Source of the DNA: Kiloniella spongiae
Lineage (GTDB): Bacteria; Pseudomonadota; Alphaproteobacteria; Kiloniellales; Kiloniellaceae
Length of the DNA: 52,049 nucleotides
Reading direction: 5' to 3'
NCBI RefSeq assembly: GCF_001026905.1
Contig: NZ_LAQL01000020.1
Location: 1 to 52,049 of the forward strand
The notes beneath the pieces are model-generated. The model ran no database searches and was not told where the DNA came from. It saw only the letters and a program-made list of their open reading frames with translations. Both the position numbers and the translations under genes were made by a program. Shown here piece by piece: positions 932 to 19,344 of this stretch (position 1 is its first letter; every line of letters begins with the position of its first letter).

Positions 932-2044
932 CTATAACATTGGTAAGGCAACGATCTCTCCTCTGCATATTTGATTGTCAGGCATTTCAATTTGAATATT
1001 TTGCCCAATATCCCAGTATCCACGATCAATAAAAGACAGACCAACGTTGGTTTCAAGTCTCGGTGACCAAATGCATGATGTTATCTGTCCTACTTGATGA
1101 CCTCCGACTGTGACGGGCCATGGTACAGAGCATGTTGGGGCGCGAGGACCATCAAACTGAAGGCCACGAATGCTTCGATCAACACCTTTGGCGTCAATAA
1201 CTTGCAAAGCCCTTTGACCAATAAAATCAATGCTGCCGTCGAGTGTGCAGAACTTCTCGAGGCCAAGCTCAAGAGGATTATTTTCACGAGTCATTTCATT
1301 GCCGTATGAAAAAAGTCCCCCTTCAATTCGCTCAATCAGATTGGGGCAACCTGGTGTAATGTTGAAGGTCTGGCCAGCTTCCCAGATAGTGTCCCAAAGA
1401 TCATGACCGAGTAATCCATCGTCGAGGTAAATCTCAAACCCGCCTTGCCGTGAATAGCCAGAACGCGCAATAACCTGTTGGGTACCTTTGAATTCAAAAC
1501 GTGCGTACTTAAAGAAACCTACGTCGCGAATGCCCTCACCAAACACGCTGACCATAAGATCTTCAGCTTTGGGTCCTTGAACAGCAAGCGGGGATACATC
1601 TGGTTCGGCAATTTCGACGTCCAGGTTAGCACCTATAGCTAGCCCCATTGCATAAAGCAGGACGTCGCTATCGGCAATGGAAAGCCAGAATTGATCATCT
1701 GCTATCTTGAGCATTACCGGATCGTTGATCATACCGCCTTGCTGATCGACGATTGGGATGTAGTAACAATCACCGACCTTGGCTTTTGCGATGCTGCGGG
1801 GTGTCATCGATTGAACAAGGCGCTCTGCATCTAGCCCTGTAATTTGGACTTGCCGTTGGCATGACACATCCCAAACTTGAACGTGTTCGCGTAAGTGCCA
1901 GTAATCTTCTTCGATAGTTGATTGAAAAGCCTTAGGCAAAAGCATGTGATTGACCACCGAGAAGCCCCGGACACCGACTTGTTCAACCCGATCTGTATAT
2001 GGAGTACGACGAATGCGTCGGGACATGTTGAGGCCGTCTGTCAT
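932..2044 (-). CDS. dmdA: Dimethylsulfoniopropionate (DMSP) demethylase DmdA
   Basis: A GcvT-fold, tetrahydrofolate-dependent enzyme of 370 residues that transfers a methyl group from DMSP to THF, giving methylmercaptopropionate and 5-methyl-THF in the cytoplasm. It resembles the Ruegeria and Pelagibacter DmdA along its whole length: an SRRIRRTPY start, FSVVNHMLLP, HLREHVQVWDVSCQRQVQI, CYYIPIVDQQGGMINDPV, DVSPLAVQGPKA, ARSGYSRQGGFEIY, and SYGNEMTRENNP. The usual length is about 365. The ATG at 2044 was chosen because it gives the family N-terminus and has AGGAA upstream; a longer TTG-started version (2077) adds 11 unlike residues. It is the last gene of a minus-strand unit with a transporter, an oxidase and a ThDP enzyme. 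The substrate could be a DMSP relative rather than DMSP. Confidence 0.88.
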   Translation of the reverse strand: MTDGLNMSRRIRRTPYTDRVEQVGVRGFSVVNHMLLPKAFQSTIEEDYWHLREHVQVWDVSCQRQVQITGLDAERLVQSMTPRSIAKAKVGDCYYIPIVDQQGGMINDPVMLKIADDQFWLSIADSDVLLYAMGLAIGANLDVEIAEPDVSPLAVQGPKAEDLMVSVFGEGIRDVGFFKYARFEFKGTQQVIARSGYSRQGGFEIYLDDGLLGHDLWDTIWEAGQTFNITPGCPNLIERIEGGLFSYGNEMTRENNPLELGLEKFCTLDGSIDFIGQRALQVIDAKGVDRSIRGLQFDGPRAPTCSVPWPVTVGGHQVGQITSCIWSPRLETNVGLSFIDRGYWDIGQNIQIEMPDNQICRGEIVALPML

Positions 2045-2061
2045 TTTGAGAATTCCTGTGC

Positions 2062-2409
2062 TTAGCTTGAAGCCCAAGTTGAGTAACTATTTGGACTCAA
2101 GATGATGGGCATGTGATATTTACCGTACGGATCAGGCATCCGAAATCGTAAAACAATATCAAAAATGATTTGATTATTTTCCGTTGGCAGGTTTCGGGTT
2201 AACCAATAAGGTGCCGTTGCAAAAACAAGTTCATATATCATGGCTGGATCACTATCCGCGATATCTACTTCTTGAGATAGGCGTCCAGCTGAGTCCATTC
2301 GGGTTGTAAAAAGTGGAGCTTTTTCGCCAAGGCGTGTCAGCGTTACAAGGATATCACTCGCGTGAGTGCCATCTACCCCGTTAAGTGTATGCGAACTGAT
2401 AAATGCCAT
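2062..2409 (-). CDS. Transthyretin-like / 5-hydroxyisourate hydrolase-fold protein with altered C-terminus
   Basis: 115 residues, the usual size for HIU hydrolase (transthyretin-related) proteins. The fold signatures are visible: the N-terminal ISSHTLNGVDG (His7), DSAGRLS (Arg43), the strand YELVFATAPYW, and YHMPIILSPNSYST near the end (His99). Genuine HIU hydrolases end in the tetrapeptide YRGS, whose Arg and Ser help form the active site; here the end is WASS (112-115). The N-terminal THVLD is also changed to SHTLN. His7, Arg43 and His99 remain. The ATG overlaps the stop of the ThDP gene (TAATG), so the two are translationally coupled. No other purine-degradation gene is near, so another cyclic or ester substrate, or a binding role, is more likely than hydroxyisourate. 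That is inference. Confidence 0.7.
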   Translation of the reverse strand: MAFISSHTLNGVDGTHASDILVTLTRLGEKAPLFTTRMDSAGRLSQEVDIADSDPAMIYELVFATAPYWLTRNLPTENNQIIFDIVLRFRMPDPYGKYHMPIILSPNSYSTWASS

Positions 2410-4139
2410 TATTCGATCGAAGCCTTATCTCTTTTATCAGAGGTCGCAGCAACTATCGGACTGATTACACCACGACATTTAACATTGATACATGCCGTTT
2501 TTCCACTTGCTATAGCGCGTTCCAACGCCCCTGGTAATTCAGCGCGTTTGGTGACCAGTTCGCTATGGCCGCCAAGGCCCTCGAACATGGCGTGAAAGGG
2601 AATGTCGCGGAAATCTGTGGCGTAATGCTGTCCATTATTGAAAAGTCGTTCCTGCTGCTGGCTAATACAATCAAGCCCGCCGTTGTTATCAATAACGACA
2701 ATGATTGGAATGTTTTCCTGAAAGCAAGCCTCAATTGACAAACCACCAGATAAGAACGCTCCATCGCCGGTAACCAGAACGGCCGTTTTATCTGGATTGA
2801 TATTCTTGGCTGCAAGGGCGAAAGAAACCCCAACGCCCAGTAAACTGTAGTTTCCAGGGTGTAATATGCCTCCCAGAGTGCGGCCGCGCGCAGCGGAAAT
2901 ATTAGTGGCGATCTCATTCCAAAAATGTGTATTGCCGCCGTCAAAAACCAACCAATCGTCATCTTTCATCGCAGCCTGTACATCAAGCGCTAGTTGCAGC
3001 GGATGCATTTTGCGACCTTGTGCTTCGTCCTCTGCAGTCTCGACGGCAATGTGATCTGACCATTCTTTGACCCAATCTGCACGTCGCTGTCGCTGTAGAT
3101 CCAACCAATCTTCCCAAGTTTTATCAACGCGGGTTAGAGCGTCCAGAAATGCGCCTGGATCAGATAAAAGCTGTAAATCGGCCCCAATATTGTACTCAAG
3201 TTCTTCATGGCTACCGTTGACGCAGACGAGTTTAGTATTGGATTGGATAAACGGCGGGTTGCCAAAATTCATCTGATTGTCCAGGCGACAGCCTACCATC
3301 AAAACCAGATCTGCTTCGTGAATTGCAGGCTTCGAGGGATGATATTGGTGAAAATCAGCCAAGCCCATATAAGCATCACACTTTTCACCTAACATTTTTG
3401 TGTGATATGGCACGTTGAAGATAGGCATACGAAGTTTAGTGCCTGCGGCTCCCAGCTTGGCTTCGCCGCCTGACCACCAGATGCCATGGCCTCCGATTAT
3501 AACTGGTCGTTTCGCCGCTCTGACTAATGACAAAACATCATCTAACCGTGTGGGGTCAGGCCAAGCACGGGGGGTAAGACGATCCGAACGGTCGAAAGGG
3601 CGTTCGTCGCGACCTGCCGCCTCGTCATAGGACGAGAACATGATATCAACTGGTAGTGCCAGATGCACTGGACCAGGATACCCAGTGGTAGCGGCATGCC
3701 AAGCTCGATCAACAAATTCACTTATGCGGGCGCCGTCAGTGATCTGCACAGAATATTTGGTGAGTGGGGCGGCGATGGCTACATCGTCGATCTCTTTGAA
3801 CCCGCCTGCACCTTGCCGTTTAATCGTAGAGGAGCCTGTGATGAAAATCACTGGACTACGCTCACCCCAAGCTTCCAACATGGCTGGCACTGCATTGGCA
3901 AATCCCTCGGGACCCACCAGACAAACTGATGGTTTGCGGGTGATCCGGGTATGGCCATCTGCTAGATGACCGGCGATCTGTTCGTGGGGGCAGTTGATCA
4001 CCGGCATTTCGCATTCCATGAACCCCTCAAGTGCGGGATTACAAAATCCCCCCGCCAGTGTGAAGGAATGCTCAACACCTTTTTCCTTAAGTGCCCGGGC
4101 CAATATCGCACCACCGCGAATCTTTGTTTGAATAGTCAT
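2409..4139 (-). CDS. ThDP-dependent enzyme of the acetolactate synthase / 2-oxoacid decarboxylase superfamily
   Basis: 576 residues with the three-domain layout of acetolactate synthase, oxalyl-CoA decarboxylase and sulfoacetaldehyde acetyltransferase. An N-terminal pyrimidine-binding domain has the cofactor-activating Glu53 in PHEQIAGHLADGHTR. A central domain spans roughly 190-330. The C-terminal domain holds the ThDP motif GDG (458-460) to NN (485-486). Family enzymes decarboxylate or ligate 2-oxoacids. The start ATG is preceded by AGGAGG at a good distance. The FMN 2-hydroxyacid oxidase is 30 bases upstream and the HIUase-like gene overlaps downstream. An oxidase followed by a ThDP enzyme suggests hydroxyacid to oxoacid to aldehyde or acyl product. 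The exact reaction cannot be read from the sequence. Glyoxylate carboligase is unlikely because it lacks this Glu. Confidence 0.75.
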   Translation of the reverse strand: MTIQTKIRGGAILARALKEKGVEHSFTLAGGFCNPALEGFMECEMPVINCPHEQIAGHLADGHTRITRKPSVCLVGPEGFANAVPAMLEAWGERSPVIFITGSSTIKRQGAGGFKEIDDVAIAAPLTKYSVQITDGARISEFVDRAWHAATTGYPGPVHLALPVDIMFSSYDEAAGRDERPFDRSDRLTPRAWPDPTRLDDVLSLVRAAKRPVIIGGHGIWWSGGEAKLGAAGTKLRMPIFNVPYHTKMLGEKCDAYMGLADFHQYHPSKPAIHEADLVLMVGCRLDNQMNFGNPPFIQSNTKLVCVNGSHEELEYNIGADLQLLSDPGAFLDALTRVDKTWEDWLDLQRQRRADWVKEWSDHIAVETAEDEAQGRKMHPLQLALDVQAAMKDDDWLVFDGGNTHFWNEIATNISAARGRTLGGILHPGNYSLLGVGVSFALAAKNINPDKTAVLVTGDGAFLSGGLSIEACFQENIPIIVVIDNNGGLDCISQQQERLFNNGQHYATDFRDIPFHAMFEGLGGHSELVTKRAELPGALERAIASGKTACINVKCRGVISPIVAATSDKRDKASIE

Positions 4140-4169
4140 GTGTGAATTTGCCTCCTGAGGGCGTGGAAT

Positions 4170-5369
4170 TTAACTGGTTGCGGTTTTAAGCAAGGGCTGC
4201 TGCAACTGTTCAACAGCTGAGGTGTTGTTTGATAAAATATCAGGCGAAACAGCGGTAATGTCGTTCAATCCGGTTTGAGCAAGTGTAAGGCTGGTGTCCT
4301 CGGCAAAGATCTTTATTAGAGAGTTTAGTCCTTTAGCACCATCTGCACCCATAGCAAAAAGCATGGGGCGTCCTATCATTACAAAATCTGCGCCCATTGC
4401 TAGAGCTTTGACAATGTCTTCGCCATTTCTGACACCACTGTCAAACAACAGTGGGTAATCGGCTCCAACAGCATTACGAATTTTTGGTAGAGCGTCGATG
4501 GCAGCGGGAGCACTATCAAGTTGTCGTCCACCATGGTTTGAGACGTAAATTGCATCAGCACCTGCTTGTTTAATGCGTATAGCATCTCGTGCAGATGTAA
4601 CCCCTTTTATTACCAAGTTTCCTGTCCAGGAAGCTCGTAATTTCTCTAAAAAATTCCAATTTGCGCCGGCACGACTTGCATTGCGGTCAAAGTGGGTTCC
4701 GTTTTTTCCAAGCTTAAAGTTTTTCGGAGATGGTGCACCGTGCCAAATTGATGTAAGTGACCATCTTGGATGTGTCGCAAAATCCCAAAGAAGTCTTGGG
4801 CCGAGACGAAAGGGCATCGTAAATCCGTTCCGTAGATCGCGCAGACGCCGCGATACCTGTGGTACATCTACGGTAAGAACCAAGGTCTTATAGCCTTCTG
4901 TACGGGCTCGTTCGACCAATTCGAGTGATAGTTCCATCGACCCGCCAACATAGAGCTGGAACCAGGCGTTTTCCCCAGCCCAATCCCGCATTTCTTTGAT
5001 TGTGCTTGAAGCTGCTGATGACAGACAGATCGGAATGTTATAGTTGGTCGCGGCCTGTGCCAAGGCTGAATCTGTGTCTGGCCAGGCCAGATTACACATG
5101 CCCATTGGAGCAATCCCAAATGGTAAATTATATTTTTGCCCCAGGAACGTTTTACTCAGATTTCGACGGTCAACATTTTCCATAACCCGCTGTTGTAATG
5201 TTATCTCATCAAACCTGGACTGGTTGCGGGTTGCGGCAACTTCACGACCAGAAGCGCCTTCGATAAAATCAAAGATAACTTTTGGCTGTCGTTGCCCGGC
5301 TATACGCACTGCATCTTCAGTGCAGAAGATGCGTTTACTAGCGCTAAAGGATGTGTCACTGTCGTGCAA
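4170..5369 (-). CDS. FMN-dependent 2-hydroxyacid oxidase/dehydrogenase
   Basis: Member of the glycolate oxidase / L-lactate dehydrogenase (LldD) TIM-barrel family, which oxidises 2-hydroxyacids to 2-oxoacids with FMN. Visible motifs are PFGIAPMGM, the Tyr of FQLYV, LVLTVDVPQVSRRLRDLRNG, the Lys of LVIKGV, and SNHGGRQLD with the catalytic His (279) and substrate-binding Arg, followed by DSGVRNGEDIVKALAMGAD and IGRP. Start choice: there is no ATG at the N-terminus. A TTG at 5369 has AAGGA seven bases upstream and gives 399 residues; a TTG at 5408 gives 412 but has no ribosome binding site. It lies between the transporter and the ThDP enzyme on one strand. Substrate unknown; lactate-, glycolate- or mandelate-like acids are the family range. 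Confidence 0.82.
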   Translation of the reverse strand: MHDSDTSFSASKRIFCTEDAVRIAGQRQPKVIFDFIEGASGREVAATRNQSRFDEITLQQRVMENVDRRNLSKTFLGQKYNLPFGIAPMGMCNLAWPDTDSALAQAATNYNIPICLSSAASSTIKEMRDWAGENAWFQLYVGGSMELSLELVERARTEGYKTLVLTVDVPQVSRRLRDLRNGFTMPFRLGPRLLWDFATHPRWSLTSIWHGAPSPKNFKLGKNGTHFDRNASRAGANWNFLEKLRASWTGNLVIKGVTSARDAIRIKQAGADAIYVSNHGGRQLDSAPAAIDALPKIRNAVGADYPLLFDSGVRNGEDIVKALAMGADFVMIGRPMLFAMGADGAKGLNSLIKIFAEDTSLTLAQTGLNDITAVSPDILSNNTSAVEQLQQPLLKTATS

Positions 5370-5469
5370 AATCTTATCCTTGTGATAACTCGGGTAATAC
5401 AAAAGCAATGTATCTTAAATAGATTTTTGAACTCAAATCGAAATAAGTGAGCAATTCATTCGAAAAATC

Positions 5470-5491: not shown

Positions 5492-5555
5492 ACTTTTCCG
5501 AAAATCTAGATTAAGACGCAATCTGATTGTCTATAGTAAAGAAAGTTTTGGCTTT

Positions 5556-7610
5556 TTAAGCGCTCGCAGGCTCGATATTGATCTCTTCAAATTGCATTGA
5601 TTCCAATTGCTCAATAGCAATATGACAACAGATAGAATGGCCATTTTCTTTTTGTTGCCAAGGCGGATTTTCTGTATCGCAGATTTTTCCAAGTTTACGT
5701 GGGCAGCGCCGTTGGAAAGGGCAGCCCTGTGTAGGTGGGGCGAGTTCAACAACATCATCTGTTGTCAGTTTTGGACGAATATCTGGATCAGGTTCGAGAA
5801 CAGCGTTTAATAATACTTCGGTATAGGGGTGTGAAGGGGTAGAGTAAACGTCTGCGGCCGGTCCGATTTCGCACAACCGCCCTTGATAGAGTACAGCTAC
5901 CCGATCTGACAGTGCGCGTACGACTGCGAGATCGTGCGAGACAAATACATAAGTGGTTCCTTGCTTTTGTTTTAGCTCATTAAGCAAATTCAAAACCGCA
6001 GCTTGTACAGATACATCGAGTGCTGAGGTGACTTCGTCACACAGAATCAGATCTGGTTCCGCAGCAAAAGCGCGTGCAATAGCCACACGTTGTTTTTCAC
6101 CACCTGATAGTTGACTGGGCAGGCGATCAAGGTAATGAGCCCCAAGTCGTACGAGCTCTAATAATTCTGTGCTTCGCTCCAACAGCGCTTGACCTGTTAA
6201 ACTAAAATAGAGTTTTAGCGGTTGTTCTAGAATTTCAGCAATTGTATGACGAGGATTCAAACTGTCGTCAGGGTTTTGAAAAACAAGCTGGATCCGGCGT
6301 AGATGGTTGGGGCAGCGCTGTTCAACCTCCCGAGGGAGGTTTTCGCCGTCGCCAAACACTATGCTACCGTTTGCGGGAGGCAACAAGCCTGCCACTGTTT
6401 TTAGTATTGTGGATTTGCCACTGCCGCTTTCTCCGACCAATCCCAATGTTTCGCCCTTTGTGAGAGTAATCGATATATTGTCAACGGTTGCAGGGCTTAT
6501 ATCCTTCTTACCACATAGCCTGTTAATTAGACTCTGTTTGGAGTATCGGATCGACAAATTGTCAAGATAAATTGCTGGTTCTGCATTCGGATCAGCATTA
6601 CACACTTTTTTTCCGTCAGGTGTCATCGACAACCGGTTCGATAGATTGGCATGATGGCAGCGGACCAATGCGTTGCCGGGTCCTGAGGCAAGTGATGGAC
6701 GGGTGCTTCTGCAAATCTCACTAGCAATCCCGCAGCGTTCGACAAAGGCGCAGCCGTTGCCAGCACCACCGGGTGCAGGGGGGCGTCCTTTTAAGGCAGA
6801 GGGTAAATGTGGGTCGCTCAATTTCGGGATTGAAGCTAGCAAACCGCGTGCGTAAGGATGCGATGGTGCTTTAAGAACTTGTCGGGTTGTGCCTTCCAGT
6901 ACAACCTCACCGGCATACATGACCATTACTCGGTCACAGACCTGTGCAATCGCCCCAAGATCGTGGCTGACATAAAGCATAGCCATGCCAGTGTCGGCAG
7001 CCAAATCGCGTAGCAATTCCAGGATATGCGCTTGTGTGGTCACATCAAGGCCGGTAGTGGGTTCATCCAGCAGTAAAGCATCAGGTTCCCCAGCCAGTGC
7101 CATGGCGATGGCAACGCGCTGCTGTTGCCCCCCTGATAATTCGTGCGGAAAACGGACAACAACTGTTTCCGGATCAGGTAAACGTACTTGCGTGAGCAAC
7201 TCAAGAACCCGGCGGTGATATTGTTCTGATTTCAGCTTGCTATGAAGCCGTAGTGCCTCTGTCAGTTGTTGGCCGATGCGCAAGGTCGGTGTTAGTGATT
7301 GACCCGAATTTTGAGGAACTAGACCGAGTTTACCTCCGCGTATCTTTTCCAATTCTGTTCGCCCCAGGGTAAACATATTTTGATCTTTGAAATGACAAGT
7401 TCCTTCCAGAATACGAAGACCGCGTTTGAGATATCCCATGGCGGCTAGAGCTAAGGTGCTTTTACCAGAGCCACTTTCGCCGACGAGTCCAACGGTTTCG
7501 CCACGTTTCACCGTGAGGTTAATGTTTCTGAGAACTGGTAACGTATGCCCTGAACGCCCTGTGAAGCCAATCGAAATATCGCGAATTTCTATAATTGAAG
7601 ATTTATTCAT
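5556..7610 (-). CDS. Dpp/Opp-type ABC transporter, two fused ATPase domains (DppD-DppF-like)
   Basis: 684 residues with two complete ABC domains. Domain 1 (about 1-320) has Walker A GESGSGKST, signature LSGGQQQRVAIAMALAGEP and Walker B ALLLDEPTTGLD. Domain 2 (about 345-680) has GESGSGKST, LSGGEKQRVAIARAFAAEP and LILCDEVTSALD. Each domain ends in the Cys-containing oligopeptide/dipeptide transporter extension (for example GCAFVERC and GCPFQRRCPRK). This is the GsiA/YejF-like arrangement that energises the permeases at the inner membrane. The ATG at 7610 was chosen because it lies one base after the permease stop. Domain 2 has Glu-Val instead of Glu-Pro after the Walker B Asp, as in many DppF-like proteins. 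The substrate is set by the partner binding protein. Confidence 0.88.
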   Translation of the reverse strand: MNKSSIIEIRDISIGFTGRSGHTLPVLRNINLTVKRGETVGLVGESGSGKSTLALAAMGYLKRGLRILEGTCHFKDQNMFTLGRTELEKIRGGKLGLVPQNSGQSLTPTLRIGQQLTEALRLHSKLKSEQYHRRVLELLTQVRLPDPETVVVRFPHELSGGQQQRVAIAMALAGEPDALLLDEPTTGLDVTTQAHILELLRDLAADTGMAMLYVSHDLGAIAQVCDRVMVMYAGEVVLEGTTRQVLKAPSHPYARGLLASIPKLSDPHLPSALKGRPPAPGGAGNGCAFVERCGIASEICRSTRPSLASGPGNALVRCHHANLSNRLSMTPDGKKVCNADPNAEPAIYLDNLSIRYSKQSLINRLCGKKDISPATVDNISITLTKGETLGLVGESGSGKSTILKTVAGLLPPANGSIVFGDGENLPREVEQRCPNHLRRIQLVFQNPDDSLNPRHTIAEILEQPLKLYFSLTGQALLERSTELLELVRLGAHYLDRLPSQLSGGEKQRVAIARAFAAEPDLILCDEVTSALDVSVQAAVLNLLNELKQKQGTTYVFVSHDLAVVRALSDRVAVLYQGRLCEIGPAADVYSTPSHPYTEVLLNAVLEPDPDIRPKLTTDDVVELAPPTQGCPFQRRCPRKLGKICDTENPPWQQKENGHSICCHIAIEQLESMQFEEINIEPASA

Positions 7611-7611
7611 T

Positions 7612-8502
7612 CTACACTGTCGCTTTCTGAGCTCGATCAATACCAAGTGATTTTGCTAAGGCATCAGCTGTTAGATTGATCCCAATAATTAACGAAGACA
7701 GTGCGATGACTGGCCCAAGGACCCCCCAAGGCGCAAAGGACATGAACCCCCGTGCATCGGATATCATCAACCCCCAGTCCGGCGTTGGCGGAGAAACGCC
7801 AAAGCCAAGGAAGGAAAGTGATGAAAATGCAAGTAACATCCAGGACCAACGCATGGCGCCCTCTACCATAAGGCTATCGAGAACATTTGGTAGTAGCTCA
7901 CGTCGCATGATTGTTGCTCGACTGTTCCCTCGGGCTCGTGCAGCTGAAACAAAGTCGCGGGCCACAACGTCCTGGGTTGCCGCGCGTGCAATCCGGATAA
8001 CTGGAATGCCATAGATGAAAGCTAAGGTTGGGACGAGAACCAGAATGCTCGTACCGAAGGTCACGATCAGCAACAGCATTTTCAAAATCCATGGCAAAGA
8101 TAGAAATGCATCCACAAGACGCATCATGACCTCATCCAAGCGTCCACCGACAAGGCCAAAAAAGATGCCAACCATCCCCCCCCAGATTACTGCAACAGGT
8201 GTTGCAATTCCGGTCACTAACATCGCCTCGCGTCCGCCCTGAATTGTACGGCTAAAGACATCCCGGCCGAGGTGATCTGTGCCTAACCAATGATTAATCC
8301 CAGGGTCAGCCAGCATCATGGTCGAATTCATTTCTTTGAAGTCGTAGGGCGCTATATAAGGGCTGATCAGGGCAAGGATAATGTGGAACACAACAAGAAA
8401 CAGTCCAACGGCACCTGATGGCCGTGAAAGAACATCGCGTAATATGCTGGAAAAGTGATCCAGTGTGGAATTTTGTGGAATAGCAGTCGCGGATACAGTC
8501 AC
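7612..8502 (-). CDS. Dpp-type ABC transporter permease (DppC-like)
   Basis: 296 residues, six predicted membrane segments, with the N-terminal OppC-type leader then a BPD_transp_1 domain. Visible family features are LGTDHLGRDVFSRTIQGGRE and the EAA-type loop around SAARARGNSRATIMRRELLPN that contacts the ATPase. The start is a GTG at 8502 with AAGGA upstream; no better ATG is available in frame. It follows the DppB-like gene by five bases and precedes the fused ATPase by one base, so it is in the same operon. Confidence 0.87.
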   Translation of the reverse strand: MTVSATAIPQNSTLDHFSSILRDVLSRPSGAVGLFLVVFHIILALISPYIAPYDFKEMNSTMMLADPGINHWLGTDHLGRDVFSRTIQGGREAMLVTGIATPVAVIWGGMVGIFFGLVGGRLDEVMMRLVDAFLSLPWILKMLLLIVTFGTSILVLVPTLAFIYGIPVIRIARAATQDVVARDFVSAARARGNSRATIMRRELLPNVLDSLMVEGAMRWSWMLLAFSSLSFLGFGVSPPTPDWGLMISDARGFMSFAPWGVLGPVIALSSLIIGINLTADALAKSLGIDRAQKATV

Positions 8503-8507
8503 GGCAG

Positions 8508-9526: not shown

Positions 9527-9539
9527 CGTAATCTTTTAT

Positions 9540-12268: not shown

Positions 12269-12446
12269 CTGGGGTACTTTCCATTCAAAACGTATCATCA
12301 AGCTTAACAGAATGCGCATCAAACTCAACCATGTAGTAAATGAATGGTGCTTACATATTTGGTTTTCGGATGAATTGCGAGTGAAATTGAATTTGTCCAC
12401 CTGATGGGATCTTAATAACTTGGTTTATGAAAGTGAGAACCGTCAA

Positions 12447-13613
12447 ATGCCCGCATTGAATTTCCCAGAGTCTGCCTGGATGAATGGCGAGTTGCGCATG
12501 TTAGAGGACATGTGCCGTAAATTTTACGAGCGTGAATGTGCCCCGCATTATGAAGAATGGGAAGCGCAAGGAGCTTTCAGTCGTGAACTTTGGGAAAAAG
12601 CGGGTGAGATGGGGTTTTTGGGGGCAGAAGTTCCTGAGGAGTTTGGAGGTTTGGGCGGCAGTTTTGCTCATGATGCAGTGATTGCTTATCAAGGCAATCT
12701 GGCGGGGATTGATGGCTGGGGCGGCGGGTTGCATAACTCAATCGTGATCCCTTACATCATTCATTATGGATCGGACGAACAAAAACACAATCTCTTACCC
12801 CGGATGATATCCGGAGAGCTGATCGGCGCGATTGCAATGACTGAGCCTGGGGCGGGATCGGATTTGCAAAACATCAGAACTACAGCGGTTAAGGATGGTA
12901 ATTTTTATAGGATTTCCGGGTCTAAGACCTTCATAACTAATGGTGCCTTGGCGAATATGATTATCGTTGCTGCCAAGACCGATCCCAAGGCTGGAGGGAA
13001 GGGAATCTCTTTATATTTGGTCGAAACTGACCAGGTCGATGGATTTCGACGGGGCCGTAATCTAGACAAACTTGGCATGAAATCAAATGACACTTCAGAG
13101 TTGTTTTTCGATGACATGCGAGTGCCTGTGTCGGCGCTTCTTGGTCAGGAAGAAGGGCAAGGTTTTGTGCAAATGATGGAGCAGTTGCCACAGGAACGAC
13201 TTCTGATCGGTGTTTATGCCGTAGCTCGAATAGAGCGAGCTCTTCGCGTTACGCTGGGTTATGTCAAGGAGCGTACAGCCTTTGGCAAAAAGATCGCGGA
13301 TTTTCAAAACACGCAGTTCGTGTTGGCTGAATGCGTAACGGAGGCGACTATTGCCAAGACTTTTCTCGATGCTTGCATCGTCGAGCATCTCGATGGACGA
13401 CTTACCACGGAAAAGGCCTCAATGGCAAAATATTGGCTGACCGACTTACAAGGGGCGATTATTGATCGTTGCCTGCAACTTTTTGGCGGTTACGGCGTTA
13501 TGGCTGAGTATCCGATAGAACGTATGTATCGTGACAATCGAATAGAACGAATTTATGCGGGTACAAACGAGATCATGAAGGTGGTTATAGCGCGTGACCT
13601 TTTAAAGGATTGA
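12447..13613 (+). CDS. Acyl-CoA dehydrogenase (long-chain/isovaleryl-type active site)
   Basis: 388 residues. FAD-dependent desaturation of an acyl-CoA to the 2-enoyl-CoA, passing electrons to ETF. Visible features are AIAMTEPGAGSDLQ, SGSKTFITNG, ERTAFGKKIADFQNTQF, QLFGGYGVMAEYPIERMYRD and IYAGTNEIMK. The catalytic base appears to be Glu250 in LPQERLLIGV, the position used by long-chain and isovaleryl-CoA dehydrogenases; the short-chain position (YEGT) is YAGT here. At 388 residues it is not the ~600-residue DmdC type used for methylmercaptopropionyl-CoA. The ATG at 12447 was chosen over a TTG at 12420. It is the first gene of the mtoX operon, divergent from lysR. Substrate not determinable. 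Confidence 0.88.
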   Translation: MPALNFPESAWMNGELRMLEDMCRKFYERECAPHYEEWEAQGAFSRELWEKAGEMGFLGAEVPEEFGGLGGSFAHDAVIAYQGNLAGIDGWGGGLHNSIVIPYIIHYGSDEQKHNLLPRMISGELIGAIAMTEPGAGSDLQNIRTTAVKDGNFYRISGSKTFITNGALANMIIVAAKTDPKAGGKGISLYLVETDQVDGFRRGRNLDKLGMKSNDTSELFFDDMRVPVSALLGQEEGQGFVQMMEQLPQERLLIGVYAVARIERALRVTLGYVKERTAFGKKIADFQNTQFVLAECVTEATIAKTFLDACIVEHLDGRLTTEKASMAKYWLTDLQGAIIDRCLQLFGGYGVMAEYPIERMYRDNRIERIYAGTNEIMKVVIARDLLKD

Positions 13614-13615
13614 TC

Positions 13616-14422
13616 ATGGATACCACAGAGATGCTACTTGAAACCCATGTCGGCAGTGTTGCCAAGTTAACAATGAATCGGCCTGGCGCACGTAACAGTC
13701 TGTCTCTGGAAATGCTGGAATGTATGTTTCGGGCAATACAGGATCTTAGCGTTAACAGCAACATACATGTTATCATACTTGCAGCCAACGGCCCTGGGTT
13801 TTGTGCAGGCCATGATCTAAAAGAACTAAAGATGATGCGTACGCAACCTGACAAAGGGCGTACATTTTATGAAGAGACGATGGACAAATGTGCGCGCCTG
13901 ATGCAGGCCATTGTTACTTGTCCAAAGCCTGTGATTGCTCAAGTTCATGGAATCGCGACTGCCGCTGGTTGTCAATTAGTGGCGAGCTGTGATCTGGCGA
14001 TCGCGACAGATACTGCCCGCTTTGCCACTCCGGGGGTGAATATAGGACTGTTTTGTTCAACACCCATGGTGGCACTTTCGCGTAATGTAGGGCGCAAATC
14101 GTCGATGAAAATGTTGTTGACCGGGGATCTGATCAGCGCGGATGAGGCACGGGCGATCGGTTTGATCAACGATATTGTTCCTGAGAACCGCCTGGCAGTG
14201 GAAACCGAGGCTTTGGCCCAACAAATCGCAGGTAAAGCCCCGACTACACTCAAAATTGGGAAAGAGGCATTTTATAAACAAATCGAAATGACGTTGTCGG
14301 AAGCCTATCATTATACTTCTGAGGTGATGGTGACCAATATGTTGGAATCCGATGCAGAGGAAGGCATCGCGGCGTTTATTGAAAAGCGCACGCCTAACTG
14401 GCAACCTCTTAAGGGAGAATGA
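13616..14422 (+). CDS. Enoyl-CoA hydratase/isomerase (crotonase, ECHDC3-like)
   Basis: 268 residues of the crotonase fold, expected to hydrate the 2-enoyl-CoA made by the preceding dehydrogenase. The oxyanion-hole motifs are PGFCAGHDLKEL and VHGIATAAGCQLVASCDLAI. The segment TPGVNIGLFCSTPMVALSRN is characteristic of the ECHDC3-like branch. In that second motif the usual catalytic Glu positions of classical hydratases are not evident, so a hydratase reaction is likely but not certain. The ATG at 13616 has AAAGGA upstream; the dehydrogenase stop is three bases before. Its own stop overlaps a possible mtoX start (ATGA). In DMSP demethylation the related DmdD or AcuH releases methanethiol from methylthioacryloyl-CoA, so this gene could play that part here; this is inference from context. 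Confidence 0.83.
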   Translation: MDTTEMLLETHVGSVAKLTMNRPGARNSLSLEMLECMFRAIQDLSVNSNIHVIILAANGPGFCAGHDLKELKMMRTQPDKGRTFYEETMDKCARLMQAIVTCPKPVIAQVHGIATAAGCQLVASCDLAIATDTARFATPGVNIGLFCSTPMVALSRNVGRKSSMKMLLTGDLISADEARAIGLINDIVPENRLAVETEALAQQIAGKAPTTLKIGKEAFYKQIEMTLSEAYHYTSEVMVTNMLESDAEEGIAAFIEKRTPNWQPLKGE

Positions 14423-14424
14423 CA

Positions 14425-15780
14425 ATGAAAGATCACTGTTGTGGGCCGGGTTATGCATCACCTGCGGAGGCCATGATGGCCCCACGGGAGAAGTTGCTTT
14501 ATACTATTGCGATTTACACAGGTACCGGTATTCAAAAGCCTGATTATCTGGCAACGATCGACAATGACCCTGACAGTCCGAGCTATTCTCAAGTTATTTC
14601 ACGTTGCGAGATGTCTGGGATTGGGGATGAATTGCATCATATGGGGTGGAATGCCTGTTCGTCGTGCTTTGACGATGCTTCAATTAGCCGAAAATATTTA
14701 CTCGTACCGGGTGTGAGGACTTCCAATATTCACGTTATTGATTGTGCCACTGATCCCCAAAACCCATCGTTATACAAAGTGATCAAGGGATCAGAGATCA
14801 AGGCGAAAACTAATCTCTCAGCACCTCACACGATCCATTGTTTGGGGGCGGAGATTATTATCTCGATGCTTGGCGATGCCAAGGGGGAGGCGCCCGGTGG
14901 ATATTTACATCTGAACAAAGACTTTGATATTATCGGTCGCTGGGAAAGCTCTATGGGTGACATCCCCTTCGGATATGATTTCTGGTATCAGCCACGCCAC
15001 AACGTAATGGTGTCGTCTGAATGGGCTGCGCCAAATACCTTCATGCCAGGCTTTGACCTTGAAGAGGTTGGTCATTTGAAATATGGACGACGCATCCATT
15101 TATGGGACTTTAAGAAGAAAGAACCCAAACAGACCTTTTATTTGGGAGAAGATGGACTGATCCCACTGGAGGTTCGCTTCCATCATAACCCCGACAGCAC
15201 GCACGGATTTTGTGGTGCAGCACTCAGCGCCAACATCATCCATTGGTGGAAGGATACTGATGGCGAATGGAAATGGGAAAAGGTTGTGGATGTGGATAAC
15301 GAGCCGCATCCTGATTGGCCTATTCCTGTACCGGGCGTGATCTCGGTAATCTTACTCTCCATGGATGATCGATTTCTTTATCTGTGTAACTGGTTGCATG
15401 GCGATATCCGACAATACGATATTTCCGATCCACATAATCCAGTATTGACTGGTCAAGTCTGGATGGGTGGACTTCTGGGGTGTGCGCCTGAGGTTAATGG
15501 TGTGAAGATCACTGGCGGACCCCAGATGATTCAACTGAGTCTCGATGGTACGCGGCTTTACGTTACAACTAGTTTGTTCAGCACTTGGGATAACCAGTTT
15601 TATCCTGAGATCCGCACCAATGGGGGCTGCATGCTGATGGTTAACTGCGATACAGAACAGGGCGGTATGAAAATTGACCCTGATTTTCTCGTTGATTTTG
15701 GCAAAGAACCCAATGGTCCGTCGCGTTGCCATGAAACCCGCTATCCTGGGGGAGACTGTACGAGCGATATCTGGATATGA
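14425..15780 (+). CDS. mtoX: Methanethiol oxidase (SBP56 / selenium-binding protein family)
   Basis: 451 residues, matching bacterial MtoX and animal SELENBP1. The copper enzyme oxidises methanethiol with O2 to formaldehyde, H2S and H2O2. Landmarks are HCCGPGYASPAEAMMAPREK at the N-terminus, DELHHMGWNACSSC (CSSC 78-81), YLLVPGVRTSNIHVID, APHTIHCLG, GYDFWYQPRHNVMVSSEWAA, RFHHNPDSTHGFCG and the C-terminal RCHETRYPGGDCTSDIWI. No signal peptide is seen, unlike the periplasmic Hyphomicrobium enzyme, so it may act in the cytoplasm. Start: an ATG at 14419 overlaps the previous stop but is only one base from AAGGGAG; the ATG at 14425 has correct spacing. Its presence inside a beta-oxidation operon points to methanethiol release by that pathway. 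Confidence 0.93.
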   Translation: MKDHCCGPGYASPAEAMMAPREKLLYTIAIYTGTGIQKPDYLATIDNDPDSPSYSQVISRCEMSGIGDELHHMGWNACSSCFDDASISRKYLLVPGVRTSNIHVIDCATDPQNPSLYKVIKGSEIKAKTNLSAPHTIHCLGAEIIISMLGDAKGEAPGGYLHLNKDFDIIGRWESSMGDIPFGYDFWYQPRHNVMVSSEWAAPNTFMPGFDLEEVGHLKYGRRIHLWDFKKKEPKQTFYLGEDGLIPLEVRFHHNPDSTHGFCGAALSANIIHWWKDTDGEWKWEKVVDVDNEPHPDWPIPVPGVISVILLSMDDRFLYLCNWLHGDIRQYDISDPHNPVLTGQVWMGGLLGCAPEVNGVKITGGPQMIQLSLDGTRLYVTTSLFSTWDNQFYPEIRTNGGCMLMVNCDTEQGGMKIDPDFLVDFGKEPNGPSRCHETRYPGGDCTSDIWI

Positions 15781-16142
15781 ATACGTACACTGTTACTATA
15801 TCCAATCGCGATAATGCGACTTATAAGGTTGCAGCACATCGACCGTTGCTGAGCTCACTTTGTGCGCAAGGTGTTGATTTGCCTTATGGCTGCAAATATG
15901 GCGGCTGCATTACCTGTGCTGGCAAGTTGATTGCAGGTAACGTTGAGCAACACCGCCAAGTGGCCCTTAATAACCGTCAACTAGAGAACGGCTACGTTAT
16001 TCTTTGCGTGGCTGTACCTATATCTGACATCACACTCGAGATCGGGGTGGAAAGTCACGATAAACTCTATCGTAATCCTTTTCTTGATCCTCTTGAACCT
16101 CATGAACTCAAGGCGAATATCGCCACACCCAAAGAGATTTGA
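15777..16142 (+). CDS. Plant-type 2Fe-2S ferredoxin
   Basis: 121 residues. Four cluster cysteines are in the plant-type pattern C39-x4-C44-x2-C47-x29-C77 (YGCKYGGCITC and VILCVAV). The ATG overlaps the mtoX stop (ATGA), so the pair is translationally coupled. It is a soluble electron carrier. A ferredoxin coupled to mtoX may donate or accept electrons for MtoX or maintain its metal site; this is inference, as characterised MtoX needs only O2. The C-terminal 30 residues are a charged tail without a recognised motif. Confidence 0.88.
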   Translation: MNTYTVTISNRDNATYKVAAHRPLLSSLCAQGVDLPYGCKYGGCITCAGKLIAGNVEQHRQVALNNRQLENGYVILCVAVPISDITLEIGVESHDKLYRNPFLDPLEPHELKANIATPKEI

Positions 16143-16143
16143 T

Positions 16144-16593: not shown

Positions 16594-16745
16594 CGGCCCA
16601 CCCATATGATCCTGCTGTTGTTCTGAAACAATGTCTCTTGATTGGTTACTGGTCGTAGCGCTGGTAAAGTTGGAATTCAAACAAAAAAGGATGCTGCTGT
16701 GGCACAGAATATTATAAAAAATCGAAAGAGATTGTTGAGGAAGCC

Positions 16746-17111: not shown

Positions 17112-18298
17112 AAACTGTAGTCATCGCATCTGGTGTTCGCACCGCGATAGGAACATTTGGTGGAGCACTCGCTGTAACACCTCCTTGCGAACTGGCAACC
17201 ATGGTTGCAGCCGAGGCAATCAAGCGTGCAGGGATTGATGCCTCTGGAATCGACCAGTCGGTCTTTGGTAATGTGATCCACAATGAACCGCGAGACATGT
17301 ATTTGTCGCGCGTTGCAGCAATGGGGGCAGGGGTATCGGAAACGGCCCCCGCGCTGACGTTGAACCGACTTTGTGGCAGTGGTTTACAGGCGGTAGTTAG
17401 TGGCGCGGAACAAATCATGCTGGGAAATGCTGATATTGTGCTTGCTGGAGGTGCTGAAAATATGAGCCGTGTCGGTCATATGATGAATGCCGCTCGGTTT
17501 GGTGCAAAGATGGGTGATATTACCGCCATAGATATGATGATTGGTGCGCTGACCGATCCGTTTGGTAATGGTCATATGGGGGTGACGGCCGAAAATGTTG
17601 CGGTTGCTAGCAGCATTGATAGAGATCAACAGGACGCGCTGGCTCTCGAAAGTCATCGCCGGGCCTCCGTCGCGATTGATGCGGGCCATTTTAAGGATCA
17701 AATTTTACCGATTGCCACCAAACGGGGCCGTAAAGAGGTGATGTTTGACAAGGATGAACATGTGCGAACAGATGTGACGGCAAGTGATTTGGAAAAACTG
17801 CGCCCGGCGTTTAAAAAAGATGGGTCAGTAACTGCAGGCAATGCGTCGGGTATCAACGATGGTGCTGCTGCACTTGTTCTGGCTGGCGAGGACGAGGCGT
17901 CGGCTAGGAATATGCCTAAGTTAGCTTTGATCCGTGCTTCTGCTGTTAGTGGTGTTGCGCCAGAGGTAATGGGAATGGGGCCCGTTCCTGCCGTGAAACT
18001 TGCGTTGAATCGCGCAGGATTAGATATATCTGACATGTCCTGTATCGAATCAAATGAGGCATTTGCGGCACAAGCCTGTGCGGTATCGAACGAACTGGAC
18101 TTTTCATCGGATATTACTAACCCCAATGGTGGTGCTATAGCTCTTGGCCATCCCGTCGGGGCTTCGGGCGCAATTATCCTGATCAAATTGGTTTACGAAC
18201 TTCGTCGTAGCGGAGGTCGATTTGGTTTAGCGACTATGTGTATAGGTGGTGGTCAAGGGATCGCTATGGTTATAGAAAATCCGGAGGCTATCGCATGA
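17108..18298 (+). CDS. Acetyl-CoA acetyltransferase (thiolase)
   Basis: 396 residues. It cleaves a 3-ketoacyl-CoA with CoA, or condenses two acetyl-CoA. The catalytic residues fall at Cys89 (LCGSGLQAV), His348 (LGHPVGASGA) and Cys378 (MCIGGGQG), the numbering of the classical biosynthetic-type thiolase. NEAFAAQ is also present. The ATG at 17108 overlaps the rhodanese stop; a longer GTG-started frame lies within the rhodanese gene and was rejected. It overlaps the next gene by four bases. In this operon it would complete beta-oxidation by releasing acetyl-CoA. Confidence 0.92.
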   Translation: MKTVVIASGVRTAIGTFGGALAVTPPCELATMVAAEAIKRAGIDASGIDQSVFGNVIHNEPRDMYLSRVAAMGAGVSETAPALTLNRLCGSGLQAVVSGAEQIMLGNADIVLAGGAENMSRVGHMMNAARFGAKMGDITAIDMMIGALTDPFGNGHMGVTAENVAVASSIDRDQQDALALESHRRASVAIDAGHFKDQILPIATKRGRKEVMFDKDEHVRTDVTASDLEKLRPAFKKDGSVTAGNASGINDGAAALVLAGEDEASARNMPKLALIRASAVSGVAPEVMGMGPVPAVKLALNRAGLDISDMSCIESNEAFAAQACAVSNELDFSSDITNPNGGAIALGHPVGASGAIILIKLVYELRRSGGRFGLATMCIGGGQGIAMVIENPEAIA

Positions 18299-19344
18299 CG
18301 AGCTTTACACAAGTTGCAATTATCGGAGCTGGTACTATGGGGGGCGGCATCGCAATTTCGGCGATCTGTAATGGTATAGAGGTGACGTTGATTGATACTA
18401 GTGAAGAGGCATTGTCCAGAGTGAAACAACGGGTTGCGAAATATCTTGAACGCCAAGTTGAAAAAGGCAGAATGTCTATGGAGATCGCGTCTATAGCTGG
18501 ATCTCGTTTGCATGTCTCAACCGATTTTGCCTCGGCCGCTGATGCAGATTTGGTGATCGAAGCAGTATTCGAAGATCTTGAGGTCAAGAAATCTGTTTTC
18601 TCCCAACTGGAATTGATCGTTTCCGAGGCCTGTCATTTGGCGACTAATACTAGTGGCCTGAAGGTTTCTGATATTGGACGTACACTGACCTATCCGGATC
18701 GGCTTTGCGGATTGCACTATTTTAGTCCTGCCGAGTTGAATCCAATCGTCGAAGTGGTGTTAAGCGATACTTCGCTAGATAGTACAATAGATGCTGCACT
18801 TTCCTTTTTGGAACAGTGCCGAAAAACACCAATTAAGTGCAATGATCAAAGTGGCTTCGCGCTAAATCGGTTTTTTTGCCCCTATACGAATGAAGCCGCA
18901 CGCTGTTTGGATGACGGGCTGGGTACTCCCGCTCAGATTGACGCAGTTGCAAAAGACGCTTTTGGCGTTCCAGTAGGTCCCTTCTTTGTTATGAATATCG
19001 TCAAGCCCCGCATTAATCTGGCAGCCGTTCGTAATCTTGCCCATCTGGGACCTTTTTACACTCCTGCTAACAGTTTGAGTGTCACTGGCGATGCCGACGA
19101 AAATTGGGAGATTGAGAAGAACCCGGCCGCGCTTAACCCACAATCGCACAAAGTAGTGGCTGATCGATTGAGAGGTGCAGTATTCTTTGCTGTTCAGGAA
19201 GAACTTAACGAAAATATCGCAAAACCTGAGGACATTGATCTTGGCGCACGTAGTGCATTTGGTTTTAATAAAGGGCCTGTCAAAATGATGGACGAGTTAT
19301 CAAATGAAGAGGTCGTCCGTTTGATTCGAATACCAAAGCAATAG
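18295..19344 (+). CDS. 3-hydroxyacyl-CoA dehydrogenase
   Basis: 349 residues. The NAD-binding Rossmann domain begins AIIGAGTMGGGIA. The catalytic region is ATNTSGLKVS and LHYFSPAELNPIVEVV, with the His of the His-Glu pair, followed by the C-terminal helical domain (SGFALNRFFCPYTNEAARCL, PVGPFFVMNIV). It oxidises 3-hydroxyacyl-CoA to 3-ketoacyl-CoA for the thiolase that overlaps it upstream. The ATG at 18295 has GGAGG eight bases before. It is slightly longer than Hbd/PaaH-type proteins (about 285-310) because of an extended C-terminal part. It is the last gene of the operon; a terminator element follows about 200 bases downstream. Confidence 0.9.
   Translation: MTSFTQVAIIGAGTMGGGIAISAICNGIEVTLIDTSEEALSRVKQRVAKYLERQVEKGRMSMEIASIAGSRLHVSTDFASAADADLVIEAVFEDLEVKKSVFSQLELIVSEACHLATNTSGLKVSDIGRTLTYPDRLCGLHYFSPAELNPIVEVVLSDTSLDSTIDAALSFLEQCRKTPIKCNDQSGFALNRFFCPYTNEAARCLDDGLGTPAQIDAVAKDAFGVPVGPFFVMNIVKPRINLAAVRNLAHLGPFYTPANSLSVTGDADENWEIEKNPAALNPQSHKVVADRLRGAVFFAVQEELNENIAKPEDIDLGARSAFGFNKGPVKMMDELSNEEVVRLIRIPKQ

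What the first reader, a model, noticed from the sequence alone, without database searches (positions are those of the whole stretch)
932..19344. LysR-centred gene block coupling DmdA, a transporter, a hydroxyacid oxidase and a methanethiol-oxidase beta-oxidation operon
Seen: two operons flank one LysR gene, one ending in dmdA, the other containing mtoX within a full beta-oxidation set. Known: DmdA strips a methyl from DMSP; the remaining methylthio-acid is degraded with release of methanethiol, which MtoX oxidises. Inference: the block is one regulon for a sulfonium compound. The added 2-hydroxyacid oxidase, ThDP enzyme and HIUase-like protein are not needed for DMSP, so the substrate may be a hydroxylated or chain-extended sulfonium (for example 4-dimethylsulfonio-2-hydroxybutyrate or a gonyol-type compound). 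This arrangement is not one I recognise as described.
Basis: partly seen in the sequence, partly recalled or inferred. Interest (0 to 1): 0.85.

Follow-up and report, generated by a model that had tools for sequence, protein, structure and literature searches.

The report
DmdA cassette for hydroxy-acid sulfonium compounds
A conserved set of marine bacterial genes pairs a DMSP-demethylase-like enzyme with enzymes for 2-hydroxy acids and methanethiol, which suggests that part of what is counted as DMSP demethylation in the sea may be the breakdown of a different sulfur compound.

Summary
The gene block is real and conserved beyond chance. FMN 2-hydroxyacid oxidase, ThDP enzyme, HIUase-like protein and DmdA form a cassette in marine alpha- and gammaproteobacteria: of 81 loci found through the ThDP gene, 74 have the HIUase-like gene, 64 DmdA, 60 the oxidase and 47 the same LysR. 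In some other genomes, second-operon genes (acyl-CoA dehydrogenase, hydratase, SBP56, thiolase) adjoin cassette genes. A common LysR box was found at both sets of promoters. The linked DmdAs form their own clade with two diagnostic replacements (Pelagibacter Tyr32→Val, Asp250→Glu). Of 22 carrier genomes tested, 13 also hold a canonical-clade DmdA. All 25 linked copies scored pass NCBI's DMSP-demethylase cut-off. Most likely this is one regulon degrading an S-methylated sulfonium 2-hydroxy acid. 4-Dimethylsulfonio-2-hydroxybutyrate is my lead candidate, but the substrate is inferred and untested. Against it: in 5 of the 22 genomes, and in the window's own, the linked DmdA is the only copy over the cut-off. 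The SBP56 is not an MtoX equivalog. I found no description in the open-licence papers searched.

The parts
932..2077 (-). DmdA-like THF methyltransferase of the ThDP-linked clade (Val42, Glu261)
   Evidence: NF009133 555 vs 410 bits; nearest PDB 3tfh Pelagibacter DmdA; separate clade; diagnostic residues
2062..2409 (-). HIUase/transthyretin-fold protein with invariant H7, H16, R43, H99 and W-x-S tail
   Evidence: PF00576; model pLDDT 93.5, best PDB matches HIUases; conservation in 79 sequences
2409..4139 (-). ThDP-dependent enzyme (2-hydroxyacyl-CoA lyase / benzaldehyde lyase / oxalyl-CoA decarboxylase-like), probable 2-oxoacid decarboxylase or lyase
   Evidence: Pfam TPP N, M, C domains; PDB ranking; no NCBIfam cut-off met among the 25 rows shown of 51
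4170..5408 (-). FMN-dependent L-2-hydroxyacid oxidase/dehydrogenase
   Evidence: PF01070 405 bits; nearest PDB L-lactate oxidase and mandelate dehydrogenase; H292, R295, G103 near-invariant in 58 sequences
5556..7646 (-). fused Dpp/Opp-type ABC ATPase
7612..8502 (-). ABC permease (DppC/NikC type)
8508..9464 (-). ABC permease (DppB/NikB type)
9540..11021 (-). ABC substrate-binding protein; 62-85% identical relatives in cassette loci
11218..11242 (-). candidate LysR box before the SBP operon, GAATTCATCCACTTTTTGCATGAAT (not significant alone)
   Evidence: PWM trained on oxidase promoters of other loci, p 0.06; shares GGATGAATT with the other promoter
11348..12400 (-). LysR-family regulator (family models begin at residue 44-45, so the true start is probably near 12271)
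   Evidence: LysR of >=40% identity in 47 of 81 cassette loci
12353..12377 (-). candidate LysR box in the LysR/ACAD promoter, CAATTCATCCGAAAACCAAATATGT
   Evidence: PWM p 0.01
12420..13613 (+). acyl-CoA dehydrogenase (397 aa, nearest 2pg0 and long-chain acyl-CoA dehydrogenase structures)
13610..14422 (+). enoyl-CoA hydratase (ECHDC3/PRK08139 type)
   Evidence: (394.7 vs cut-off 313)
14419..15780 (+). SBP56 protein, probable methanethiol oxidase below the MtoX cut-off
   Evidence: PF05694 677 bits; 155 vs 650 for MtoX; aligned to 2ece
15777..16142 (+). [2Fe-2S] ferredoxin
   Evidence: PF00111
16084..16593 (+). CoA_binding_2 protein
   Evidence: PF13380
16746..17111 (+). rhodanese
   Evidence: PF00581
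17021..18298 (+). thiolase (BktB-like)
   Evidence: PRK09051 586 vs 565 bits
18238..19344 (+). 3-hydroxyacyl-CoA dehydrogenase
   Evidence: PF02737

Best explanation
The block is one LysR-controlled catabolic pathway for an S-methylated sulfonium 2-hydroxy acid other than DMSP, with 4-dimethylsulfonio-2-hydroxybutyrate (DMSHB, an intermediate of algal and bacterial DMSP synthesis) as lead candidate. Inferred steps: (1) the Dpp-type ABC system imports the zwitterion. (2) The clade-specific DmdA moves one S-methyl to tetrahydrofolate, leaving a methylthio-2-hydroxy acid (MTHB if DMSHB). (3) The FMN enzyme oxidises it to the 2-oxo acid. (4) The ThDP enzyme, with the HIUase-fold partner, decarboxylates or cleaves it to an aldehyde or acid one carbon shorter (methional or MMPA). 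(5) After CoA activation by a ligase encoded elsewhere, the acyl-CoA dehydrogenase, hydratase, 3-hydroxyacyl-CoA dehydrogenase and thiolase release methanethiol and short acyl-CoA. (6) SBP56 oxidises methanethiol; the ferredoxin, rhodanese and CoA-binding proteins serve sulfide and thiol handling. Shown here: the genes, their conserved linkage, the separate DmdA clade with two diagnostic residues, and a shared promoter motif. Inferred: every reaction and the substrate. My probability is about 0.6 for a non-DMSP 2-hydroxy (or 2-oxo) sulfonium or S-methyl acid, and about 0.3 for DMSHB itself.
For: Cassette: 64 of 81 ThDP loci carry DmdA, 52 of 81 carry both DmdA and FMNox; in the map the usual order is FMNox-ThDP-HIU-DmdA. 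In the 7 class-sampled ThDP genomes other than the window's, HIU is beside ThDP in 7, and FMNox and DmdA in 5 (overlap with the 80 named loci not checked). Linked DmdAs form one clade: 64 rows, SH-aLRT 98, 62 of the 63 ThDP-linked rows plus 2 rows not beside ThDP, one of which lies beside SBP56 and LysR. Two residues separate the clade fully: Val in 63 of 63 letters vs Tyr in 45 of 45 rows outside clade and sister pair; Glu 64 of 64 vs Asp 45 of 45. In 7 genomes looked at later, 5 of 5 linked were Val/Glu and 2 of 2 unlinked Tyr/Asp. 13 of 22 genomes with a linked DmdA also have a canonical-clade DmdA elsewhere (30 of the 80 named loci's genomes were searched). Second-operon genes beside cassette genes: L081 HIU-thiolase 61 bp, L091 DmdA-ECH 10 bp, L105/L119 DmdA-ACAD 27 bp, L066/L067/L076/L090 SBP56 divergent from ThDP or FMNox by 51-240 bp (L105/L119 and L066/L067/L076 are close kin). 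LysR box trained on FMNox promoters (37 of 41 of these at p<=0.05): ACAD 5 of 8, LysR 28 of 47, SBP 8 of 18 at p<=0.05. Transport: ABC loci 20 of 20 have DmdA (p 0.0087), TTT-transporter loci 0 of 8 (p 7.6e-7; related loci not independent).
Against: The substrate is untested. Thiolase and 3-hydroxyacyl-CoA dehydrogenase are not needed for DMSHB. FMN enzymes of this family act on S-2-hydroxy acids, while algal MTHB/DMSHB is D (both recalled, no call). Five of 22 genomes (G146, G150, G155, G156, G170), and the window's own genome, have the linked DmdA as their only protein over the DMSP-demethylase cut-off, which is also what a plain DMSP enzyme would look like. Second-operon genes are seen in only 13 of 32 loci with >=9.9 kb on both sides. 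SBP56 with CoA_binding occurs without the ThDP gene in 3 of 6 genomes with a close SBP56. An MttB-family gene, usually a quaternary-amine enzyme, is in 19 of 81 loci. TRAP-type loci do not follow the transporter rule (13 with DmdA, 4 without). The window's SBP-promoter box alone is not significant (p 0.06), and the tested promoters come from the same loci as the training ones.
Confidence: 0.58

Rival explanations
1. The gene is an ordinary DMSP demethylase clade whose operon mates belong to an unrelated 2-hydroxyacid pathway that shares C1 or sulfur regulation.
For: Passes the NF009133 equivalog cut-off; nearest solved structure is Pelagibacter DmdA; the residues around 3TFH 193-206 are largely shared with the canonical roseobacter clade; sole over-cut-off DmdA in 5 of 22 carrier genomes and in the window's own.
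Against: Co-resident canonical-clade DmdA in 13 of 22; Tyr32Val and Asp250Glu in every clade row with a letter there; DmdA lies in the ThDP locus in 64 of 81.
Confidence: 0.2
2. Gonyol or another chain-extended 3-hydroxy sulfonium is the substrate: DmdA demethylates, then 3-hydroxyacyl-CoA dehydrogenase and thiolase cut 5-methylthio-3-oxopentanoyl-CoA to MMPA-CoA, and ACAD and ECH release MeSH.
For: Uses all four beta-oxidation enzymes; the thiolase is BktB-like and the ACAD nearest long-chain acyl-CoA dehydrogenases; marine bacteria consume gonyol by an unknown route (PMC7221440, passages).
Against: Leaves the FMN oxidase and ThDP enzyme, among the most conserved neighbours, without a role; second-operon genes are seen in only 13 of 32 long loci.
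Confidence: 0.13
3. DMSHB is the substrate but the order is reversed: the FMN and ThDP enzymes oxidatively decarboxylate DMSHB to DMSP (or its aldehyde), which DmdA then demethylates.
For: DMSHB to DMSP is an oxidative decarboxylation (PMC5395565, passages; DMSHB decarboxylase in PMC11306096, passages); all genes present.
Against: Predicts a DMSP-specific DmdA, which would not need its own clade or fixed residue changes; 4-dimethylsulfonio-2-oxobutyrate is expected to lose DMS readily (inference).
Confidence: 0.08
4. The substrate is a nitrogen compound, an N-methyl betaine 2-hydroxy acid.
For: MttB-family gene in 19 of 81 loci, all 19 with DmdA; the window continues into a methylated-amine island.
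Against: SBP56, rhodanese and, in L058 and L197, ETHE1-like genes (named by sequence reading only) point to methanethiol and sulfide; DMSP demethylase is the closest family by far (555 bits, next 175).
Confidence: 0.1

Closest known systems
DMSP demethylation pathway (DmdA-DmdB-DmdC-DmdD/AcuH)
   Same: DmdA family enzyme, acyl-CoA dehydrogenase, hydratase, methanethiol as expected product
   Different: DmdA of another clade; no CoA ligase in the block; ACAD and ECH nearest to 2pg0/long-chain acyl-CoA dehydrogenase and ECHDC3-type structures; added 2-hydroxyacid oxidase, ThDP enzyme, HIUase-like protein
MtoX methanethiol oxidase operon (mtoX-SCO1/SenC-mauG)
   Same: SBP56 family
   Different: 155 vs cut-off 650 bits; operon neighbours are ferredoxin, CoA-binding protein and rhodanese, with no SCO1 or MauG among the operon genes (known gene content from PMC5739008, passages)
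Mandelate-type pathway (FMN S-mandelate dehydrogenase, then ThDP benzoylformate decarboxylase; recalled)
   Same: S-2-hydroxyacid to 2-oxoacid to aldehyde logic
   Different: ThDP enzyme nearest 2-hydroxyacyl-CoA lyase and benzaldehyde lyase; coupled to demethylase and SBP56
DsyGD / DMSHB decarboxylase step of DMSP synthesis
   Same: possible shared compound DMSHB
   Different: DsyD is similar to a ureidoglycolate-lyase domain (PMC11306096, passages); here FMN and ThDP enzymes
5-hydroxyisourate hydrolase
   Same: fold, and invariant His-Arg-His
   Different: C-terminal YRGS tetrad (recalled) is W-x-S; extra invariant His16; the window genome has two other HIUase-like genes on C10

Membership tests
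DmdA (DMSP demethylase, NF009133) | score over curated equivalog cut-off | tested here: met
   555.3 vs 410 bits
DmdA (DMSP demethylase, NF009133) | falls in the canonical roseobacter DmdA clade | tested here: not met
   separate clade of 64 rows, SH-aLRT 98; quick tree, Pelagibacter row unresolved on a long branch, 'canonical' is my label for the clade that holds the 600-700 bit roseobacter copies
DmdA (DMSP demethylase, NF009133) | DMSP-contact Trp (W171 in PMC7487153, which I equate with 3TFH W197 by spacing) | tested here: inconclusive
   Tyr in 63 of 64 clade rows, but also in 22 of 24 canonical rows
DmdA (DMSP demethylase, NF009133) | demethylates DMSP | not testable with these tools
   needs enzyme assay
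DMSP demethylation pathway DmdBCD | CoA ligase DmdB in the operon | tested here: not met
   no ligase among window genes 932-19344; the rest of the genome was not searched for one
DMSP demethylation pathway DmdBCD | acyl-CoA dehydrogenase and crotonase are DmdC and DmdD orthologs | tested here: inconclusive
   nearest solved structures are other dehydrogenases and ECHDC3-type hydratases; no chain bears the name DmdC or DmdD in the 60 rows shown of 116 and 209, but depositors' names are generic
MtoX methanethiol oxidase | NF052453 cut-off | tested here: not met
   155.4 vs 650 bits
MtoX methanethiol oxidase | SBP56 family and conserved metal-site histidines | tested here: met
   PF05694 677 bits; HH, H and H motifs align with 2ece; ligand list from PMC5739008 passages, matched by eye
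5-hydroxyisourate hydrolase | HIUase/transthyretin fold | tested here: met
   AlphaFold model; the 24 best PDB rows are HIUases, HIUase-related proteins, allantoin synthase or a reconstructed ancestor, TMq 0.75-0.83
5-hydroxyisourate hydrolase | TIGR02962 cut-off; C-terminal YRGS (recalled) | tested here: not met
   56.5 vs 87.45 bits; W-x-S invariant
FMN-dependent 2-hydroxyacid oxidase family | PF01070 and catalytic His/Arg (roles recalled) | tested here: met
   405 bits; H292 and R295 near-invariant in 58 sequences
2-hydroxyacyl-CoA lyase / acetolactate synthase equivalogs | NCBIfam cut-off | tested here: not met
   best 254.5 vs 587; none of the 25 rows shown of 51 reaches its cut-off

The most novel reading that the evidence does not exclude
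A widespread marine clade that passes the DMSP-demethylase cut-off is in fact the first enzyme of an undescribed pathway for a 2-hydroxy sulfonium acid (DMSHB or a homologue). It would run by demethylation, FMN oxidation, ThDP decarboxylation with an HIUase-fold partner, then methanethiol release and SBP56 oxidation. In G150 (ASP10-04a), G155 (IMCC1909) and G156 (a Planktomarina MAG) it is the only over-cut-off 'dmdA' in the assembly, so gene-based estimates of DMSP demethylation in such lineages would be wrong.
Probability: 0.45. Interest if true: 0.85.

Novelty: new variant of a known kind. Interest (0 to 1): 0.68.

Why it matters
dmdA is the standard marker for DMSP demethylation in the sea. 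If a clade that passes a standard cut-off works on another algal sulfonium, then marker-based budgets mix two pathways. The unexplained bacterial use of gonyol, DMSA or related zwitterions would also gain candidate genes. Two fixed residues and the ThDP neighbour make the clade easy to separate in metagenomes.

Tried and rejected
Purine catabolism for the HIUase-like protein: rejected as main role, since the window genome has two other HIUase-like genes on C10 and the protein is tied to ThDP. Glyoxylate carboligase reading of the ThDP enzyme: the one such chain in the 60 PDB rows shown of 145 is the last of them. Trp197Tyr as the specificity marker: rejected, because 22 of 24 canonical rows also have Tyr. 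Exact 5-base palindromes for the LysR box gave words in at most 5 loci (shuffle maximum 2-3); six-mer enrichment and a PWM gave the motif. Plasmid collection: no match at E 1e-100. Literature: searches returned nothing that I recognised as describing the cassette. They searched only open-licence PMC papers; I read passages of PMC5395565, PMC11306096, PMC7221440, PMC5739008, PMC10675870, PMC7487153 and PMC13360808, and saw the others only as listings. I could not place the clade among the published dmdA clades A-E, having no reference sequences.


Full report
Anatomy. The window belongs to an unnamed 4.47 Mb genome. By equal contig lengths, two genomes of its GTDB family are Pelagibius sp. Alg239-R121 (G018, L080) and a Kiloniellaceae MAG (G010, L088), so I take it for a Kiloniella-like alphaproteobacterium (inference). 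On the minus strand a Dpp-type ABC importer is followed by FMN oxidase, ThDP enzyme, HIUase-like protein and DmdA, with gaps of -35 to 147 bp. A LysR gene separates this from the plus-strand operon acyl-CoA dehydrogenase, hydratase, SBP56, ferredoxin, CoA-binding protein, rhodanese, thiolase, 3-hydroxyacyl-CoA dehydrogenase. The 8 congeners searched lack the ThDP gene, so the block is sporadic in its genus.

Is the association real? In 143 relatives the ThDP enzyme (E<=1e-100) occurs in 4 genomes, 5 loci, each time with the HIUase-like gene. A scan of one genome for each of 84,980 species, with two peptide patterns of the ThDP alignment, found 488 relatives; only the best 80 were kept and examined, so the sample leans to close relatives. 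With L040 added, 81 loci (a few from one genome) carry, at 40% identity or more, HIU in 74, DmdA in 64, FMNox in 60, LysR in 47 and the ABC binding protein in 20. Among 53 loci with at least 4 kb on both sides the figures are HIU 50, DmdA 44, FMNox 40, LysR 36. A class sample of 387 genomes gave ThDP in 8; HIU is beside it in all 8 and DmdA in 6, and no DmdA of 59% identity or more occurred elsewhere. The two ThDP genomes without DmdA share a genus (G414, G474).

One pathway. Genes of the second operon adjoin the cassette in some genomes: HIU-thiolase-HCDH in Leisingera (L081), DmdA-ECH in L091, DmdA-ACAD in L105 and L119, and SBP56 divergent from ThDP or FMNox in L066, L067, L076 and L090. 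In G018 a ThDP-HIU operon without DmdA lies near the whole ACAD-to-HCDH operon (L039, L201). In G049 a clade DmdA lies next to LysR and SBP56 (L203). Against this, only 13 of 32 loci with long flanks show any second-operon gene. SBP56 with CoA_binding also occurs without ThDP in G044, G046 and G053 (a ferredoxin was seen in G044 and G053). The SBP56 module is therefore a partner, not a fixed member.

Regulation. A PWM trained on FMNox promoters (consensus cCAttCATAGCncTtnCGaATAGGT, with LysR-type T-N11-A spacing) was scanned over other promoters of the same loci against 100 dinucleotide shuffles each. At p<=0.05 it hit 5 of 8 ACAD, 28 of 47 LysR and 8 of 18 SBP promoters; 37 of 41 training promoters hit. 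Divergent LysR and ACAD promoters share sequence and loci are related, so these counts overstate independence. In the window the LysR/ACAD region has a site at p 0.01 and the SBP promoter one at p 0.06; both contain AATTCATCC.

DmdA. All 25 ThDP-linked copies scored (window, G010, G018 and 22 genomes) pass the DMSP-demethylase cut-off. In a tree of 112 rows, 62 of 63 ThDP-linked rows plus two others form one clade (SH-aLRT 98). The exception is a second, distant DmdA on a MAG contig labelled Sulfurimonas (L108). The copy of G156, cut short by a stop, was too short to enter the tree. The tree was a quick search, several outside rows are long, and the Pelagibacter row is unresolved. Sixteen positions differ between the linked and canonical clades at 85%; two do so fully. 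Position 32 of Pelagibacter DmdA is Tyr in 45 of 45 rows outside the clade and its sister pair and Val in 63 of 63 clade letters; position 250 is Asp 45 of 45 versus Glu 64 of 64; the two sister rows are Val/Glu. In 7 genomes looked at later, the 5 linked copies are Val/Glu and the 2 unlinked Tyr/Asp. I could not measure whether these residues line the substrate site. I searched the genomes of 30 of the 80 named loci; 22 have a linked DmdA. Of these, 13 also hold a canonical-clade copy, 4 another over-cut-off copy (G157, G158, G159, and a contig-end piece in G161), and 5 only the linked one. The window's own genome also has only the linked one. Completeness of the 30 was not given.

The other enzymes. 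The FMN enzyme is nearest L-lactate oxidase and mandelate dehydrogenase. H292, R295 and G103 are near-invariant in 58 sequences; Gly at that place is recalled from mandelate dehydrogenase and lactate monooxygenase, against Ala in oxidases. The ThDP enzyme is nearest 2-hydroxyacyl-CoA lyase, oxalyl-CoA decarboxylase and benzaldehyde lyase. The HIUase-like protein has the HIUase fold. H7, R43 and H99 are invariant in 79 sequences, with a new invariant H16 and the tail W-x-S. The acyl-CoA dehydrogenase and hydratase are nearest to 2pg0/long-chain and ECHDC3-type structures; whether they are DmdC or DmdD orthologs was not settled.

Variants that speak to chemistry. Loci with a tripartite tricarboxylate (TTT) transporter lack DmdA in 8 of 8, while ABC loci have it in 20 of 20; TRAP loci are mixed, 13 with and 4 without (TTT and TRAP identities are my reading of the sequences). 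An FAD-linked oxidase that I read as a 2-hydroxyacid dehydrogenase (5 loci) and a TauD dioxygenase (4 loci) occur only where DmdA is absent (Pfam run on one member of each). The more constant core is thus 2-hydroxyacid oxidation plus ThDP enzyme, and DmdA comes with importers suited to zwitterions (inference). This is why I favour an S-methyl 2-hydroxy acid family: DMSHB with DmdA, and already demethylated acids without it.

Literature. [quoted passage not shown] Gonyol and DMSA are consumed by marine bacteria by routes not yet recognised (PMC7221440, passages). DMSHB is known as a DMSP precursor (PMC11306096, passages). RCA genomes are credited with dmdA (PMC10675870, passages). No paper found describes this cassette (open-licence PMC only, mostly seen as listings).

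Verdict. The single-regulon idea is well supported; a non-DMSP 2-hydroxy sulfonium substrate is likely but untested; DMSHB is the best named candidate.

Noticed in passing
window 29406-51437: The window continues into a methylated-amine and C1 island: formate-THF ligase, type III glutamine synthetase, Amt-like transporter (below its cut-off), GcvT-like protein, choline/betaine-type ABC importer and TMAO demethylase (NF053776, 1202 vs 1100 bits).
   Followed up: partly
L048:13166-17533 and other cassette loci: An MttB-family gene (Pfam run on L048) is in 19 of 81 loci, all with DmdA; ketopantoate-reductase-like genes are in 16 and FAA-hydrolase-like in 10 loci, with an Ldh_2 gene in the L048 operon.
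   Followed up: partly
L072:15268-17580, L122:5791-8130, L201:12966-15260: Molybdopterin oxidoreductase (Pfam run on L072; the others by likeness; BisC-like is my reading) near ThDP or after the ACAD-to-HCDH operon, perhaps an S-oxide reductase for related substrates.
   Followed up: no
L099, L104 (SAR116): ThDP-HIU with phytanoyl-CoA-dioxygenase-family genes and a molybdopterin enzyme (Pfam run on L099), without FMNox and DmdA.
   Followed up: no
L110, L111, L122, L124: ThDP enzyme of the same family without the HIUase-like gene, DmdA or FMNox in the locus, in Granulosicoccaceae and a Chromatiales genome.
   Followed up: no
G156:C2:111921-113000: The linked DmdA of a Planktomarina MAG has an in-frame TAG in the search row; decay or assembly error not decided.
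   Followed up: no
G158:C161 and G159:C5: Oceanospirillaceae MAGs carry two further tandem DmdA-like genes in another clade.
   Followed up: no
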